NCBI GenBank assembly: GCA_002900995.3
Contig: CM035311.1
Span: 1,302,001 to 1,366,000 of the forward strand
DNA length: 64,000 bases
From: Ganoderma boninense
Lineage: Eukaryota > Basidiomycota > Agaricomycetes > Polyporales > Polyporaceae
Direction of reading: 5' to 3'
A program made the position numbers and the translations under genes. Under the pieces are notes generated by a model. That model was not told where the DNA came from. It worked only from the letters and a program-made list of their open reading frames with translations, and ran no database searches. Of this stretch, positions 39,989-47,804 are shown piece after piece (position 1 is the stretch's first letter; every line of letters starts with the position of its first letter).

Positions 39989-42054
39989 TTACGAAGCTAT
40001 CAGAACCTGTTTGGCAGAGAAGAGGCGGGGTTCGGAATCAGCGAACGCCTCTCTTGTACCGTTCCCAACATGGATCCTGCCGAACTCACCGCCGAAGGCG
40101 TCAGCCCCAGATCTCGCAATGTTCGTGAGAAGTCCGAACGAGCGAAGGTCTTCCTACAGATCGGACGTTCCGAATCAATTCAAATATCAGCTCCGCACTC
40201 ATTAACAACCAGCCGAGGACCAAGACATGAACAATTGAACACTTACCTCGGAAACGTGAGCGAAAAGTTGACCGTCTCTACGTCGACCTCAAGCGTCTGG
40301 CCTGCGAGATACTCTGCCACCTCACGCAGCGCTACAGGGAAGCCCGTCCAGGGCGTCCGCGTCAACACATAGTCCCCGAGCATCACGCAGGGATCGGACA
40401 GAAGCAGGAAGCAATGCACGCACTGGAATCGCTGGGGAGCGAGGTCGTGTATGGCTGTCCGCCCTTCGCCATGCGAATCTGCAAGCGCGTCTCGGGGTAG
40501 TCCTTCCCTGCCAGTCCGGTCTTCGGTGCGCCAGCGGCAGCAGCTGCCGCAGCGGGCGCACTTGTACTGGGCTGCGCCGCCTCCGGGAGAGGCTTGCCCT
40601 CGCGCAGCGCCTTCTCTCGGGCTGCCTTCTCTGCGCGTGCTTTCTTGTCGGCTTCAATCTGAGCCTTCACTGCCGCACGCGCCTTCGCGTCCTCGATTTT
40701 TTCTGTGCATTCCTTGTCTCAGACGCACTGGAATGGAGTGGCGGAGAGAGCGGTTGACATGAGCAATGACATACCGCGACGTTTGGCCTCCGCCTCTTTG
40801 AGAAGCTCCTTCTGCTTCATTTCCTCCCGGATCTTGTTCATATCCTGCACACGCACACAGTAAATATACTGTCTTACGCCACAATGCATGGCGTGAAGAA
40901 CGAATGGATGCCTTACCTTGCCTGCCTTCCGGCGAATAGCCTCGTTAGCTATGGTTTCCTTAGCATCTTCCTTGGCTTTCGCAGCCCGCTTTACGGCCAT
41001 CTTTTCCCGAAGGTCTGCCAGCTTCTGCTGCCTCTCCTCCTCGGTTAAGGGTTTGATCTGCAACGCACATCCAATAATGAGCCACAGCTAAACGTCAAGC
41101 AACATTCCATTTTGCAAGTCACTGAAGACCACAATGAACTCTTCTCAGCTCAATGGAAGAGAGATTCCACAAAGTTCCCCCTTGAAGATGGGACCAGCCA
41201 CGATAGACAGCCCGAACAGTCCTTGCTGTCGGTCATCGCACACAGCTCGCATAAGTAAACAACCGAAATGCTACCCGTCCGACGGCCATCCAATACGCCA
41301 CAGATCCGCAAGACGGAGTATGCTGCTCTCATGCGGCAGTTGCATGGACGAACAAGCTTCAAGGCACCGCTAATCCCCTGCCACGATATGATGGCATGAA
41401 GGAGTCATGCGGGAATTACATGTGAGAATCTCCTCTCGAATAAACCCGCAGAAATTCACGGCCTGTCCACGGAGCACAAACGGTCATTCGCACCGCCAAA
41501 TGAAGGGGCGGCGGGTGCGGTGCCAAGACAAGGAAGTGTAGGAGATAGAAAGGATACAGAAAAAAGGACACGCACCTCCTCCGTAGACTCTTCGAACTGG
41601 TCATGCCCGCTCTTCTCCGCGTGATAGTTGGCGAGGTCGACGTTCTTGAACGTCTTACCGCAGATCGAGCACCTGATGCTCTTTGCCTCCGCGCCCTCTG
41701 CCGCTGCACCCGAGGATCCCTCTCCGCCGCCACCACCTTCCGCCTTCCCATACACGGCCTTGAGCGCGGCGAGCTCCTCGTCGTCCCCATCTACATCCAT
41801 GCTGTCGCTCGGTGGCGGGGCAGACCTCGCTGATTCCGAGACAGATGTAAGATCGGGGACAGGCTTGCCCTCATTCTCAATGATGTGATCCATTGCAGGC
41901 TGGAGACCCCTGTTTCCTGTCGCTTTCAAGGCCCCTGCATATCGGCGAGAGCTCGTTCGTGAGAAGAAGAGCAGGAAGGGGATCAACGATCAGCCTTACA
42001 ATCGACACGTTGTGGGTCAAACCCCATGGAAAGGAGGACGTCTTTGTCCGACAT
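39989..42054 (-). CDS. UBA - C2H2 zinc finger - UBX protein (UBXN1/SAKS1-like)
   Basis: A ubiquitin- and Cdc48/p97-binding adaptor. The start ATG (42054) gives MSDKDVLLSMGFDPQRV, the first helix and MGF loop of a UBA domain, completed in exon 2 by ALKATGNRGLQPAMDHII. Next comes a C2H2 finger (CSICGKTFKNVDLANYH, KSGH) at about residues 110-135. A long charged helix (EEERQQKLADLREKMA, MNKIREEMKQKELL, QIEADKKARAEKAARE) follows, then an Ala-rich linker and a C-terminal UBX domain: TRLQIRMAKGGQP, LREVAEYLAGQ, VNFSLTFPRKTF, SRTLRDLGLTPSAVLIAS, stop at 39989-39991. The TFPRKTF stretch covers the Cdc48-contacting loop position. About six introns. A transposon sits 147 bp upstream of its start, so its promoter may be altered. 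Confidence 0.85.
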
Positions 42055-42194: not shown

Positions 42195-42200
42195 CTAGAG
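42195..42200. repeat. left target-site duplication
   Basis: CTAGAG directly abutting the outer end of the left terminal inverted repeat; identical to 47799-47804. Confidence 0.85.
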
Positions 42201-42255
42201 TATGGACGGCCGGAGGGTCACGGTTCGATTTCGACTTTCGAATCCGCGCTTTTGA
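42201..42255. repeat. left terminal inverted repeat
   Basis: 55 bases beginning TATGGACGGCCGGAGGGTCA. The reverse complement of 47744-47798 matches it at 54 of 55 positions; the mismatch is at position 43 (T here, C in the other end). It contains three close TTCGA/TCGA boxes. Confidence 0.95.
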
Positions 42256-42394
42256 GTTTTGGCGCCGACTCTTTTGTTTCCCGACCATTTGTGCGCAGGT
42301 CGCCTTGATTATCCTCGACATGTTTTTATGTGTGCTACGACCTCAGCCTTCGCTATTCTGTTGAGTTTGCCATGGATACGGCATGTATTGGCAG

Positions 42395-42402
42395 TATATA
42401 AG
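42395..42402 (+). promoter_or_regulatory. TATA box of the transposase gene
   Basis: TATATAAG about 90 bases upstream of the transposase start, inside the element. Confidence 0.5.
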
Positions 42403-42490
42403 ACCCATTTTCAGAACCACGGTTGCTGGCATCAGTCCCTAGTATTAGGGCTTTCTCTCTCGAGTTTCGAAGTCCTGGACGCGATTCAAC

Positions 42491-44129
42491 ATGCCTAACC
42501 CCACCGGTGTCAATGGATATGATAACGGAACTGGTGAGCTGCTCACGAGGAGCCCACATTGCGGTACTGATGCCGGGTCCCTTGCAGTACCACCGGAAGA
42601 TGAGCTCATTGCTGCGCTGCAGCAGTACGCTCGGGAACAGCTGTCTCTCGAGCGGCGCATCCAGCGGCTTGGAGCGGATCTGGGTTACCACATCAAGTAT
42701 GTTATTGTCATCACCTCCATTTGTCGACCAGTAACTAACATTAGTTCTATATTTTCACAGGAAAGGGAAACTCAAGCAGCTCAACCGCCGGTACAACATT
42801 CCAACCTCTCGGAAGCCACCTCCACTTCCAATAGCAACCACCTTGGTCTGTGCCGAAATGGTCACTGATCTCCATCGTCGTCGAGGACCAAATGCTGTCA
42901 AGAGTCGACTGGCTCTGCAAGGCTTCAATTTGCCCCGGTGAGTTTCTTCGTGGAATTCCGGTATGCATACATGCTGATTAATTGTAAAGCTCCGTTATTC
43001 GTGCTGTTATGCACGATAATGATGACATCGGTCCAAATGTCCGGCATCCTCAGTCCAAGAGCCGCAAGATTGTTCGGGGTAAGCTAGAATCCTTCGGGAT
43101 CTGGCATGAGCTTAGCGTCGATGGGCACGAGAAGCTTGGCGACAAAGCTCTGCAGATGGGTCTTGTCGGATTTCACATTTACGGGGCCCGAGACAAGTGG
43201 TCCGGTAAAGTGCTGCTACTTATCGTTCTTCCGAGCTCTCGGTTTGCAGAGGCGATCGGGCATGTTTACCTAGATTTCTGTGTTGAGTACAGCCGTACGT
43301 CCTGGCTACTCATCGCTCCACTCCTGTCAGTGCTGATGTTTTACTCTTCCATAGTTATTCCGATCCAGGTCACCTTCGATGGAGGCAGTGAAACGCCCGA
43401 CATGAAAGGCATTCAAACTGCTCTGCGGTACGTCTATTGTTTAATAGTATATGTGGAGCATTGCTGCATGACATCTAATGCTGAGTTGAATAGAAACACA
43501 TTTGCACCACATCTCAAGGACAGCAACCTGCCGCCATTCATGCCATTGCCAAGCACACGCAACATTGTTATCGAGAATTTGTGGTCACGGTGGCTTACAC
43601 ATTCTGGCCTCAACATCCAGACGACGCTGCTTGAAGGCAAGACTAATGGCATCTTCAACGCTGGTGACAACATTGACGTGTGAGTGCCAAAACATGGTTG
43701 CTTGGAGTGCGGTGACCTTGGCCTAACAATTTAGACTTGGACAGCAATTTATTCCAGTGGCTGTGGTCGCAGATTGTCCAGATCGAGCTGAATGGCTTCA
43801 CAGCGTACTGGAACGCTCATCACGTTCAGAAGCAGAAGGACAAACTGATGCCTTCGGGCAGCACTCCGAACGACTTTTTTGTGACTCCTGAACAGTGGGG
43901 CGGCCAGGATTGTGGGATCCCGGTTGACCTTACTGTGGTTGAGGCTCTTCGGAAGGAGTTAAAGATGCCTCATGAAAGTGTTTACAAGTTTGTTTCTGAT
44001 GACTTTCGTCATGCGGCAGAGGATGCGTACGCTGCACTTGGGTTTCCGGCTCTGACCTTATGTAGCGGCTGGGCTATCTTTGCACAGATGAAGGCTGTAT
44101 TATCCACTGTATATGCGTCCGGAATGTAG
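42491..44129 (+). CDS. DDE transposase, basidiomycete integrase-core type
   Basis: The recombinase that should cut the element at its inverted repeats. Joined exons read: an N-terminal helix (DELIAALQQYAREQLSLERR), a helix-turn-helix-like DNA-binding region (RRGPNAVKSRLALQG, IPR-like LPRSVIRAVMHDND), then the catalytic core. The first Asp is in LSVDGHEKL, the second in QVTFDGGSETPDM, and the Glu in IVIENLWSRW. NLFQWLWSQIV, FTAYWNAHHVQ and KLMPSGSTPNDFF follow; these are typical of the widespread agaricomycete integrase-core proteins. The intron after GDNID is GTGAGT to TTGGACAG (ending 43747), which restores NLFQWLW. Introns also at about 42696-42760, 42939-42989, 43299-43352 and 43428-43493. 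No frameshift seen, so it may be active. Confidence 0.85.
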
Positions 44130-44353
44130 GAATTTTATGCATCTTACACTAGTCTATAAAAAGTGCTGCACACCAGCTTCAACTTCTTTAGTTTTACTTC
44201 AACATCCCTCATGCGCGTTGCCAATGCACTTGTTCTCCATGAACCCTTATCACGGCGCACAGCATCAGGATTGAATGCATTGGGGAAGGGTCATAGATAC
44301 ACAACCATGAATATGTAGATTATGAGTACTCCACACATTACACATCGCAATTA

Positions 44354-46930
44354 TTAGGTAGAACTGAGAGCCTCCTGTTCACTGTGAGAATGAGCTGACT
44401 CATAACTAACCAAACCGGGTTTCTTCAGCTCCCCTTCATTATTGTCATCATCGTCAGACTCTGTATCATACTTGTCTTGGTCATGGTGTGACAGTATACG
44501 ATCTCGGTCTTCGAGAGGGTCCGACGTGTCTCGGAGGCCGAGTTCTTGGCAGATACTGTTGCATGTATGGTCTGACAAGAATCTTTTGATGCCTGCCTCA
44601 CCATGATCCCCAACCCCGCTTGTGCTACATTAAAGGAGAAATTAGAATACAGTAGGACAAGTCAATGTGAGCGCCGGCGACTCACCCGGATGAAGTGTGT
44701 GTCATAACATCGAACAAAATATCACCCCGTGCCCCAGTGCTGAGGTTTCCACTCGATGCTGTCAAATTAAACACTCTTGGATCAGCACTGACTCTAGGAG
44801 TGAATATGTGAGACATACTTTGCAGATCAGCAAAAACCTTCGTCCTAAGGCTGTACACGTAGGCAAAGTGTACGAATGCCATAAGTGTAGCACCCCGCTT
44901 ATCGCGGTGGTTCGGATGCTCCATAGTCCCACTCCAGCGTTCCACCAAGGATGAGCGTTCGGGTTCAACAAGCCATACAATACCAGAATCCCGTTCAGAA
45001 AAGTCTGCATCACTCCACTGGTCAGGCGTGATCCCCGAGGCTGGACTCGGGCAAGCGGTGGAGTCTTCGCCATCTAAAACCTCCCGGGCCAAGGCACAGT
45101 TCGAAAACTCAAACCCTAATGATTGGACAGTTAGACCAACTTAAATAGATTCACCAAAGACCAGCAAACTCACGTTCAAAGACCTCTGTGCCTCTCTCAG
45201 ACGCAGTGTGATAGAACCTCTTCAGAAAATACTTTCCCTGGTAGAGACGTTCCGCATCGCACTCGAGCGCCTCAAAATTCTCCTTGCAAGAAACCTGGCA
45301 TTCATCTCCCTGTCCTACTTGAAAGAATCGCTTCACCACACAGTCGTCGACACTTCCATCCTTGGTCAACTTGACCTATATAAGAGCCAGAGTTATCAGT
45401 GTACATAAATACGCTCGTGCATATTAAAATTGGCAGGTATCGCACCTTGTAGACACGCTTTGTAGCTCCGAAAGCAAAAAACTCATCAGCCACTGAGGCA
45501 TTGTATGGCTTCTCCTTCCACAGCCAACTGAATCGCCCCACATCGTTGATCCTGAGCTTTGCAAGCTGGAGAACGGCCTTGGAAACAGGCACAACTGGCG
45601 CCGGTTTCCGAGAGTATGGGATGTAGGTTGACTCCAGACGAGCTACAGTAGTTACAAGATCACTATGTGAGTTGAAGCTTTGAAGCTATCAAGTAGACTC
45701 ACTTCGCAAACGCTTAGCTCCATAGCTAACCAGTGATGATCCAGGACGCTTCTTTCCCTGAGCCTTGTTCCACTGTAGGAGCTCCTTCTCGTTACGCGTC
45801 GGAGAAGGCAGGCCAGTACGGTCCTCCCACTGTAACTGCTGTTAGCATCAGATATTTCATACACAACTGAAAAGACGTACGACGGAGATGTCAATAAATA
45901 AGACAACATTGATCAATGGCGTCTTGATGTGCTTCAGCTCTTGAGGCACTTTTCCGAAGTACCCATTGCGGTGTTGAGTGGAGTGATGCCTGTCGTAAAA
46001 GTCACCAAGTGTCTCACTTTCGGTATCACCCTCTGGTAGGATATTTCCCGGGAAGCGAATCGAGACATCAGCCCTGCAGTGGAAATGAGTAAGTCACATA
46101 CAAGCCCGCAGAATCTAGTGCTTACCGTGTGAGGCCCTTGCTCGTTTTCTTTTCCCATAGTACATTCAACATATCAAGAACATCCTTCAAAACATCTAAA
46201 GGTAACTTTGAGCTAAAATATTGAGTTATTAAAGATAGCGGCACGAACCTGCCATTTCTGTGTCGGATGGATGTGTCCGAACAAGTGTTGCAAGAAAAGA
46301 AACCTTGCCGTCCTTCTTTGTAGAAACAACAGGCTGAAAAGATATGGAAATATTCCGTCCCTGTGTTGCAGGACGGGATGGCTCAAAGAACGGTGGCGGA
46401 GGTGGCGGCATTGCGGGTGCGGGTGCAGATGGGCCTGGGTAACGGGGAATAGGAGGAGCTATGGCGCGGTGGTGGCCATTGAGCCCTCTATGCTCAGTTG
46501 CAAGTGCACGCACATTGGCCATGTCCTGAACAGCCTGAGATGTGAGGGCTTCCCGATCAGCCACAGGTTCTATAAGAATGCATCAGCTCATACCCGCAAA
46601 TAGAAGTATAAGTAGCTCGATAGACTTACGACGACCACGGGCGCAGCCTCCACACATATCATTCTTGAAATTCTTACCAACAGCACCACATTCTTGACAC
46701 TGACGATAGCTCTAGACATCGCATTCTAGTCAGCTCCACTCAGTAGTGAATCGAGAGAGTGGGCTCACTCGTATCTCTGCAGCCCGGTCAGTCTTGCCTT
46801 GACTCTCGAACGTAAGGATGAGTTCACACTGGCAGCAGAGCCCAGGTGTGGTCTTGCGAGAAAAATATCCTCCACATCCGTCCACTCCATGACAGAGGCC
46901 GGTGTGTACGTCGGGAGCTTCATCGGACAT
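44354..46930 (-). CDS. alpha-type (atypical) protein kinase with zinc ribbons, transposon cargo
   Basis: A serine/threonine kinase of the alpha-kinase (MHCK/eEF2K) fold. The N-terminus has two Cys-pair ribbons (CHGVDGCGGYF, CCQC; CQECGAVG, CGGC). A Pro-rich linker follows (APAMPPPPPPFFEP), then PFxD-like helper segments. The kinase core, over about nine introns, includes VYKV, VVKRFF (ATP-site Lys), FEFSNCALARE, IVWLVEPERSSLVERWSGT, HFAYVYSLRTKVFADLQS (catalytic Asp), ILFDVMTHT, the Gly-rich SGVGDHGEAGIKRF and the zinc-site end HTCNSICQELGL. The tail is acidic (SDDDDNNEGE). All expected motifs are present without a lesion. The start at 46930 is the simplest; coding upstream to 47513 in a compatible frame is possible. 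Agaricomycetes carry many such kinases, but their roles are mostly unknown. A role in transposition or host benefit is not shown. Confidence 0.85.
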
Positions 46931-47513
46931 GGCAGCAGGTAGGAGGAAGAAGACTGAGGAGGCTTGGGGTCGAAATAACAGAAACTCACCCATATTTATG
47001 CATTTCAGCTCCATGTTGCTGAATCCAAGCGTTGATTGTGAGCAAAGCACAACCACAAGGCGCAATGCAGTGGCTGAGGCTCCAACTGCCGTAGCAAAGC
47101 GTGCTCTGAGTCCGGCTGAAGTGCGCATGGTCACACATCCGCTGAGCTCAACATAGCACGCATAAATATGCAGGACAGGCAGTAGAAATAGCACAATTAC
47201 ATTTGGATATGACTTGCATATACAGAGGTAGAGATAGAGGGTGCGAGAGGACAAGGAAAACATACCAATGCCAGGCACCTATAAGTTCCTGTCCCATCTT
47301 TCCGGCTTCGAACAACCATCCTCCCTGCAGCGCTAGATACGAACCCGAGGAGTTGCCAGTCATAGAAAGATATACATGAGACAAGCTGGAGGGGAGACGG
47401 CCGGGATGTAGAGGAGACTCTGGTGCTGGGACTCCGAGGGAAGACTCGAGGACGAGCCAAGGCGGAAATCGGGCGCTTAATTCGGCAATGGGCGGTGAGT
47501 TACTCGAAGTCAC
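46931..47513 (-). other. possible upstream exons of the kinase or a third small ORF
   Basis: A frame from 47513 reads MTSSNSPPIAELSAR through LFEAGKMGQELIGAWH, ending at a good GTATGT donor. A matching AG acceptor near 47131 leads into a frame that runs into the kinase start (CVTMRTSAGLRARF, then FSNMELKCINMG). Either the kinase is longer than annotated or this is leader sequence. No domain is recognised. Confidence 0.3.
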
Positions 47514-47743
47514 ACACCGGAAGGCATATTGCCAGCTACATCCACTGTACAGAGAGAAAAATAATTTTCAGAGTGTTATGTGCTACAGGAAAGAGTGCCC
47601 ATATGGTGGTTCTACCCCGAAGTATCCTGTGCAGCACCTTACATTATGTATGACTCCCTGGTGTGACCGAGATTGTGACGGCAGAGAGAAGCGCTTGTGA
47701 CAACCCCGCTTGGGCCGGCAGCACAAAGCGCACAATTGGATCG

Positions 47744-47798
47744 TCAAAAGCGCGGGTTCGAAAGTCGAAATCGAACCGTGACCCTCCGGCCGTCCATA
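47744..47798. repeat. right terminal inverted repeat
   Basis: 55 bases ending CCGTCCATA, the inverted partner of 42201-42255 with one mismatch. It contains a perfect 7-bp hairpin, GGTTCGA and TCGAACC around 9 bases. Confidence 0.95.
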
Positions 47799-47804
47799 CT
47801 AGAG
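47799..47804. repeat. right target-site duplication
   Basis: CTAGAG directly abutting the right inverted repeat; identical to 42195-42200. Confidence 0.85.

What the first reader, a model, noticed from the sequence alone, without database searches (positions are those of the whole stretch)
42195..47804. Complete, fresh-looking DNA transposon that carries a protein kinase
Directly seen: 55-bp inverted repeats with one mismatch, an exact 6-bp CTAGAG duplication outside them, and 5,598 bp between the outer ends. Inside are only two recognisable genes, a DDE integrase-core transposase and an alpha-kinase, facing each other. The repeats and duplication bracket both genes, so the kinase is part of the mobile unit and not a neighbour. 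I know of no described cut-and-paste family with an alpha-kinase as a standard component. If the pairing recurs it would be a new element class and may explain alpha-kinase expansions in agaricomycetes.
Basis: partly seen in the sequence, partly recalled or inferred. Interest (0 to 1): 0.88.

Follow-up and report, generated by a model that had tools for sequence, protein, structure and literature searches.

The report
Jumping gene carrying an alpha-kinase
This is an intact fungal DNA transposon of the IS3EU kind that carries its own protein kinase; the pairing was already noted in passing for rusts and a truffle, but here every alpha-kinase found in the genome lies near such a transposase, and two sister copies carry different versions of the kinase's catalytic half.

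Summary
Confirmed. 42201-47798 is a complete 5,598-bp DNA transposon: 55-bp TIRs with one mismatch (TATGG..CCATA), exact 6-bp CTAGAG duplication, and intact transposase (425 aa) and alpha-kinase (664 aa) genes, tail to tail. A second copy in the same genome has its own 6-bp duplication and unrelated flanks, so the kinase is inside a unit that has moved. The kind is known: these ends and duplication are those given for IS3EU, and Kojima 2025 (PMC12730594) states that TET+ IS3EU families carry transposase and alpha-kinase in opposite orientations. So: a TET-less member of a known kind, not a new class. Beyond that paper: all 16 alpha-kinase loci found here lie within 30 kb of a transposase of this family, 14 within 12 kb; 0 of 13 rva_4-type transposase loci lie near a kinase. 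In 10 distant pairs the two genes diverge in step (r 0.95; less in wider sets). The two copies differ sharply in the kinase catalytic half (dS 1.46 against 0.09 in the transposase), which points to module exchange. Against: no transposon ends were found at the distant loci searched. The kinase's role is inferred.

The parts
42195..42200 (.). left target-site duplication CTAGAG
   Evidence: exact match to 47799-47804
42201..42255 (+). left terminal inverted repeat, 55 bp, begins TATGG
42491..44129 (+). transposase gene, 7 exons (42491-42533, 42588-42696, 42761-42937, 42990-43294, 43355-43427, 43494-43679, 43745-44129), 425 aa, putative DDE residues D154, D220, E263
   Evidence: hand-spliced GT-AG model, no internal stop; same borders intact in copy 2; public relative of the same length, 88% identical; PF24764 weak; D, D, E conserved
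44115..45550 (.). tract that differs between the two copies; from about the transposase stop codon to kinase exon 7 (kinase 3' half and tail)
   Evidence: 50-bp windows; dS jump; edges approximate
44354..46930 (-). alpha-kinase gene, 11 exons read on the minus strand, 664 aa; catalytic domain residues 375-600, Cys-rich N-terminus
   Evidence: fold of a close relative
47744..47798 (-). right terminal inverted repeat, 55 bp, ends CCATA
47799..47804 (.). right target-site duplication CTAGAG

Best explanation
The stretch is an autonomous, recently moved IS3EU-type cut-and-paste transposon of what looks like a Ganoderma relative (from its closest protein matches). Its transposase (RNase-H-like DDE fold) cuts at the TATGG..CCATA ends and inserts with a 6-bp staggered cut, which leaves the 6-bp duplication. 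Its second gene, an alpha-kinase that keeps the conserved positions of its relatives and has a Cys-rich N-terminus, is a regular passenger kept by purifying selection. The most likely role (inferred, not shown) is to phosphorylate the transposase or a host silencing or chromatin factor so that the element escapes control, much as TET/JBP is proposed to do in related elements. The catalytic half of the kinase has been exchanged between element lineages by recombination. Shown: structure, second copy, intact frames, linkage, co-divergence, abrupt mosaic divergence. Inferred: present activity, the exchange event itself, the kinase's targets, and its benefit to the element.
For: Ends and TSD match the published IS3EU definition (6-bp TSD, TIR over 30 bp, TAYGG..CCRTA; 'TA..TA termini', TSDs usually 6 bp). 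Convergent transposase and kinase as stated for TET+ IS3EU. Second copy at C3:44992-50543 with TSD GCGGAC; similarity stops at the TIRs; flanks (5 kb left, 7 kb right) without a match. Both genes complete in both copies: 16 of 16 introns keep GT-AG in copy 2 and its kinase reaches a stop at 675 aa. dN/dS between copies is 0.16 (transposase) and 0.17 (kinase). Conserved columns kept by the window kinase: 10 of 10 invariant and 39 of 40 near-invariant. Kinase model of a close relative matches solved alpha-kinases; transposase model of a close relative matches DDE integrases and transposases. All 16 kinase loci found lie within 30 kb of the transposase family, 14 within 12 kb (about 1e-26 if places were random), 0 of 13 rva_4 loci near a kinase. 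Co-divergence r = 0.948, 0 of 100,000 permutations, 10 pairs.
Against: The transposase is below Pfam's PF24764 cut-off (22.9 against 26 bits), and no tree with Repbase IS3EU sequences could be made, so membership rests on ends, TSD, fold and gene order. Transposase fold matches are broad (best Foldseek E 1.6e-4, TM on the query about 0.2-0.35). Two copies were found in this genome and no transposition was observed. Of the 14 non-focal kinase loci 13 have the kinase on the same strand as the nearest transposase and one lies divergently, with midpoints 4.6-29 kb apart, unlike the compact convergent element; no TAYGG end with a matching 6-bp repeat was found at three loci read over longer stretches, and no terminal inverted repeat in the flanks held for 13 pairs. 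Adding two widely spaced pairs lowers Mantel r to 0.70; with a pair whose transposase is partial it was 0.65.
Confidence: 0.9

Rival explanations
1. The kinase is a one-off capture of a host gene by the transposon and does nothing for it.
For: No biochemical role is known for it; only two copies of the element were found here.
Against: The pairing recurs in other genera as consecutive locus tags, in TET+ IS3EU of rusts and Tuber, and as linkage at all 16 kinase loci found here; kinase under purifying selection between copies with conserved columns kept.
Confidence: 0.06
2. The distant kinase-transposase loci are host gene clusters with domesticated transposases, and the focal element is the only mobile form.
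For: No TIR with TSD found at three loci read over longer stretches, and no terminal inverted repeat in held flanks; parts of the transposase 3' exon strongly conserved (median dN/dS 0.07 over the 17 of 78 comparisons with dS under 2; no stop in 13 of 13); a third small gene is also linked at 12 of 14 places.
Against: Scattered over many contigs and co-diverging as a unit, with some near-identical or partial duplicates; active-site residues were not checked locus by locus; the ends may lie beyond the stretches read.
Confidence: 0.35
3. The two copies differ in the kinase half because of very fast adaptive change, not recombination.
For: Kinase residues 311-370 and 616-664 have raised dN/dS (0.54 and 0.32).
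Against: Silent sites jump too (dS 1.46 in residues 371-615 with dN/dS 0.10) with fairly abrupt edges, and over residues 361-600 copy 2's catalytic half is closer to the G. sinense kinase than to its sister copy.
Confidence: 0.05

Closest known systems
IS3EU superfamily, TET+ families of rusts and Tuber indicum (Kojima 2025, PMC12730594; passages and section 4.1 seen)
   Same: 6-bp TSD, long TIRs ending TAYGG..CCRTA (stated for the rust families), transposase and alpha-kinase in opposite orientations
   Different: no TET/JBP gene between them here: only 224 bp separate the two genes; polypore host
IS3EU/GingerRoot as summarised in PMC10045372 (passages seen)
   Same: TA..TA termini, usually 6-bp TSD, DDE transposase
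   Different: the passages that I saw do not mention a kinase
alpha-kinase family PF02816 (MHCK A, eEF2K, ChaK/TRPM, ALPK1)
   Same: profile and fold, conserved positions
   Different: carried by a transposon; Cys-rich N-terminal region without a Pfam match

Membership tests
IS3EU | 6-bp target-site duplication | tested here: met
   CTAGAG and, for copy 2, GCGGAC, both exact
IS3EU | TIR longer than 30 bp, ends TAYGG..CCRTA | tested here: met
   55 bp, TATGG..CCATA in both copies; definition
IS3EU | IS3-like DDE integrase-core transposase | tested here: inconclusive
   PF24764 22.9 bits, under the 26-bit cut-off; many homologues labelled PF24764; D154, D220, E263 conserved in 67, 66 and 65 of 67 aligned relatives; fold of a close relative matches DDE integrases and transposases
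IS3EU | transposase clusters with IS3EU in a tree | not testable with these tools
   Repbase sequences are not held
kinase-bearing IS3EU (Kojima 2025) | alpha-kinase in the opposite orientation to the transposase | tested here: met
TET+ IS3EU | TET/JBP gene between transposase and kinase | tested here: not met
   224-bp gap between the two stop codons; no TET/JBP search of its own was made
alpha-kinase PF02816 | full-length domain with conserved positions | tested here: met
   E 2.9e-25, 1-185 of 185; 10 of 10 invariant and 39 of 40 near-invariant columns kept

The most novel reading that the evidence does not exclude
Alpha-kinases in this polypore, perhaps in mushrooms generally, are not host kinases but the diversifying second gene of an old kinase-transposase lineage. 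Its catalytic half is a cassette swapped between elements, as expected if it is in an arms race with a host silencing factor. The distant loci would be larger three-gene units (transposase, kinase, small Cys-His protein) of the same lineage.
Probability: 0.3. Interest if true: 0.75.

Novelty: new member of a known kind. Interest (0 to 1): 0.45.

Why it matters
Alpha-kinases are described as expanded in rusts (PMC4469406, one passage) and stand in an enrichment table of a wheat-rust paper (PMC5295586, one passage). If most such kinases are transposon genes, as two of the 16 loci found here are and the linkage of the other 14 suggests, they should not be counted as host signalling genes, and their substrates become candidates for the machinery that controls transposons. 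Two sister copies with different catalytic halves make that testable.

Tried and rejected
Ends of the distant loci. Inverted repeats between held flanks, 16 locus combinations for 13 kinase-transposase pairs: one 18-nt match without a matching flank. C1:2506441-2521834: inverted matches of 14-23 nt without matching 6-bp flanks. C12:431722-443120: none of 16 nt or more. C9, 4.7 kb between the genes unread: none of 15 nt or more. The left edge shared by C1:4164 and C17:38 showed no such end. Ends may be decayed, different, or outside what I read.

Co-divergence. The first test gave r 0.65, 35 of 50,000 (11 linked pairs), and r 0.57, 37 of 50,000 (13 pairs); nearest neighbour the same for 10 of 13. 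One transposase (C12:440) is partial in it. I then dropped that pair and also tightened the column filter: 10 pairs gave r 0.948, 0 of 100,000; 12 pairs, with the two spaced 22-29 kb, gave r 0.697, 11 of 100,000; nearest neighbour the same for 8 of 12. Never in the test: C2:2903/2910 (kinase locus not held) and the two focal copies.

The first whole-kinase protein search gave 4 hits, only candidates sharing most words being scored; the catalytic region gave 35. For the alignments I used 28 of these 35 and 67 of 87 transposase relatives, leaving out mostly partial or odd-length ones. Pfam scans of ORFs between kinase and transposase at C1 and of C9 ORFs found nothing over a cut-off. Nine literature searches with alpha-kinase, IS3EU or kinase-plus-transposon terms listed one paper in which I saw an alpha-kinase placed in a fungal transposon (PMC12730594); I looked into five of the papers listed.

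Full report
What is there. The window lies at C8:1302001-1366000 of a 55.6-Mb genome in 74 contigs. The element spans 42201-47798. Its arms are 55-bp inverted repeats with one mismatch, flanked by an exact CTAGAG. The 57-nt arms include two bases that are complementary by accident of the duplication. Chance is excluded.

Genes. I spliced both genes by hand with GT-AG introns of 51-70 bp. The transposase is 425 aa in seven exons; the same length and start occur in Ganoderma adspersum V8D89_001737 (88% identity). The kinase is 664 aa in eleven exons, close in length to Ganoderma sinense GSI_05922 (667 aa, 79%). Pfam gives Alpha_kinase at 2.9e-25 over the whole model; the transposase reaches only 22.9 bits against PF24764, below the cut-off of 26. 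An AlphaFold model of the G. adspersum relative (67 sequences, mean pLDDT 89) matches TnsB, IstA and retroviral integrases weakly but consistently, and D154, D220 and E263 are kept in 67, 66 and 65 of 67 aligned relatives (67 of the 87 found were aligned). That these three are the catalytic triad is my reading of the motif. A model of the G. sinense kinase (28 sequences, mean pLDDT 67, catalytic part mostly 80-97) matches eEF2K, MHCK A and other alpha-kinases. The window kinase keeps 10 of 10 invariant and 39 of 40 near-invariant columns. It looks enzymatically able. That these columns include the ATP lysine, the metal aspartates and the zinc site is my recall of the family, not a call.

Mobility. 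A second copy lies at C3:44992-50543: 5,552 bp, its own GCGGAC duplication, TIRs without a mismatch, and flanks (5 kb left, 7 kb right) without similarity to those of the window. Under the same exon borders both its genes are open, 16 of 16 introns keep GT-AG, and its kinase reaches a stop at 675 aa. Two insertions at unrelated sites, each with its own 6-bp duplication, make the kinase part of the moving unit.

A mosaic pair. The two copies are 97.0% identical from the left TIR to 43990, 69.7% from 43991 to 45700, and 93.6% from 45701 to the right end. The left edge falls at about the transposase stop codon and the right edge in kinase exon 7. dS is 0.09 in the transposase, 0.22 in kinase residues 1-310 and 1.46 in residues 371-615, with dN/dS of 0.16, 0.08 and 0.10; two short stretches have higher ratios (0.54 in 311-370, 0.32 in 616-664). 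Over residues 361-600 copy 2 is closer to the G. sinense kinase (81-87% per 60-residue block) than to the window's kinase (61-78%), although in residues 1-120 it is closest to the window's (97%). Replacement of the catalytic half by recombination fits; fast adaptive change alone does not, since silent sites jump too. The donor was not found.

Recurrence in the genome. The kinase profile found 15 loci, the two focal ones included, and the protein search one more by a short match (C2:2903, E 8e-6). The transposase search found 53 matches that I grouped by hand into 23 loci, the non-focal ones 33-45% identical. Of the 16 kinase loci 14 lie within 12 kb of one of these and 16 within 30 kb; 0 of 13 rva_4-type loci (26 matches, grouped by hand) lie within 30 kb of a kinase. 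Seen from the transposase, 14 of 23 have a kinase within 12 kb and 18 of 23 within 30 kb, so 5 of 23 have none near. The searches score only the best candidates, so a kinase without a transposase could have been missed. The paired genes diverge in step: r 0.948 for 10 pairs, and less in wider sets that are told under Tried and rejected. Parts of the 3' exon of 13 distant transposases have no stop, and dN/dS among the 17 of 78 comparisons with dS below 2 has a median of 0.07.

A difference that I cannot explain. At 13 of the 14 non-focal kinase loci the kinase is on the same strand as the nearest transposase, and at one (C12:932) they diverge; midpoints are 4.6-29 kb apart, not convergent in a compact 5.6-kb unit. 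A third small Cys-His-rich protein recurs at 14 places, 12 of them about 2-17 kb from a kinase locus by subtraction; the window has no such match. At the loci I could read no IS3EU ends were found. These may be larger related transposons or domesticated clusters; I leave it open.

Other species. Transposase and kinase have consecutive locus tags in Ganoderma adspersum (V8D89_001737, _001736) and Trametes versicolor (VTO73DRAFT_4881, _4882). In Daedaleopsis nitida and Mycena maculata a hit of each list is on a contig of the same length (3641072; 189398), which suggests but does not prove linkage. So 4 of 35 kinase hits share a contig length with one of the 87 transposase hits; the lists are partial and the context of the rest is unknown.

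What is known. Kojima 2025 (PMC12730594; passages, section 4.1) gives the ends and duplication found here for rust IS3EU and says that all TET+ IS3EU families have a TET/JBP gene between transposase and alpha-kinase, these two being in opposite orientations. The TET+ IS3EU of that paper come from rusts and Tuber indicum in the passages I saw. PMC10045372 (passages) gives TA..TA termini and usually 6-bp duplications for IS3EU. PMC8955403 (passages) reports IS3EU in Ganoderma leucocontextum; the word alpha-kinase does not occur in it. Alpha-kinases in rusts are in PMC5295586 and PMC4469406 (one passage each). My searches listed no paper on kinase module exchange or on a polypore kinase-bearing IS3EU, but no search had exchange or polypore as a term, only open-licence PMC papers are searched, and Repbase Reports are not held.

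Mechanism. Shown: ends, duplications, intact frames, two insertions, linkage, co-divergence, mosaic structure. Following from known families: a DDE transposase cuts at the TIRs and inserts with a 6-bp stagger. Inferred: the kinase serves the element, most likely by acting on transposase or on a host silencing factor; the swapping of its catalytic half would then reflect host pressure. I put the identity at 0.9 and this role at about 0.3.

Verdict. The added value is that the kinases found in this genome are tied to this transposase family and that the catalytic half differs between sister elements as if exchanged.

Noticed in passing
G000 C1:2514790 (L080:954-1397) and 13 other places: A small Cys-His-rich protein (motif about GGLTxxELSxILCxCxxC..H.C), no Pfam match over cut-off, recurs at 14 places, 12 within about 17 kb of an alpha-kinase locus.
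   Followed up: partly
L060 (C20:46748-50116) and L075 (C20:58909-62280): 99.7% identical inverted duplicate of a transposase locus on a 96-kb contig; recent duplication or an assembly artefact.
   Followed up: no
L064 (C12:438249) and L069 (C12:420340): A 1-kb transposase piece 97.8% identical between two places about 18 kb apart in inverted order.
   Followed up: no
L088:6833-8155: 440-aa open frame with a repeated VPSQT stretch between the small Cys-His gene and the kinase at C9; no Pfam match.
   Followed up: no
window 41456-41989: The open frame just left of the insertion has a sub-threshold C2H2 (OTU1-type) zinc finger and UBA-like match; the element inserted about 210 bp from its upper end.
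   Followed up: no
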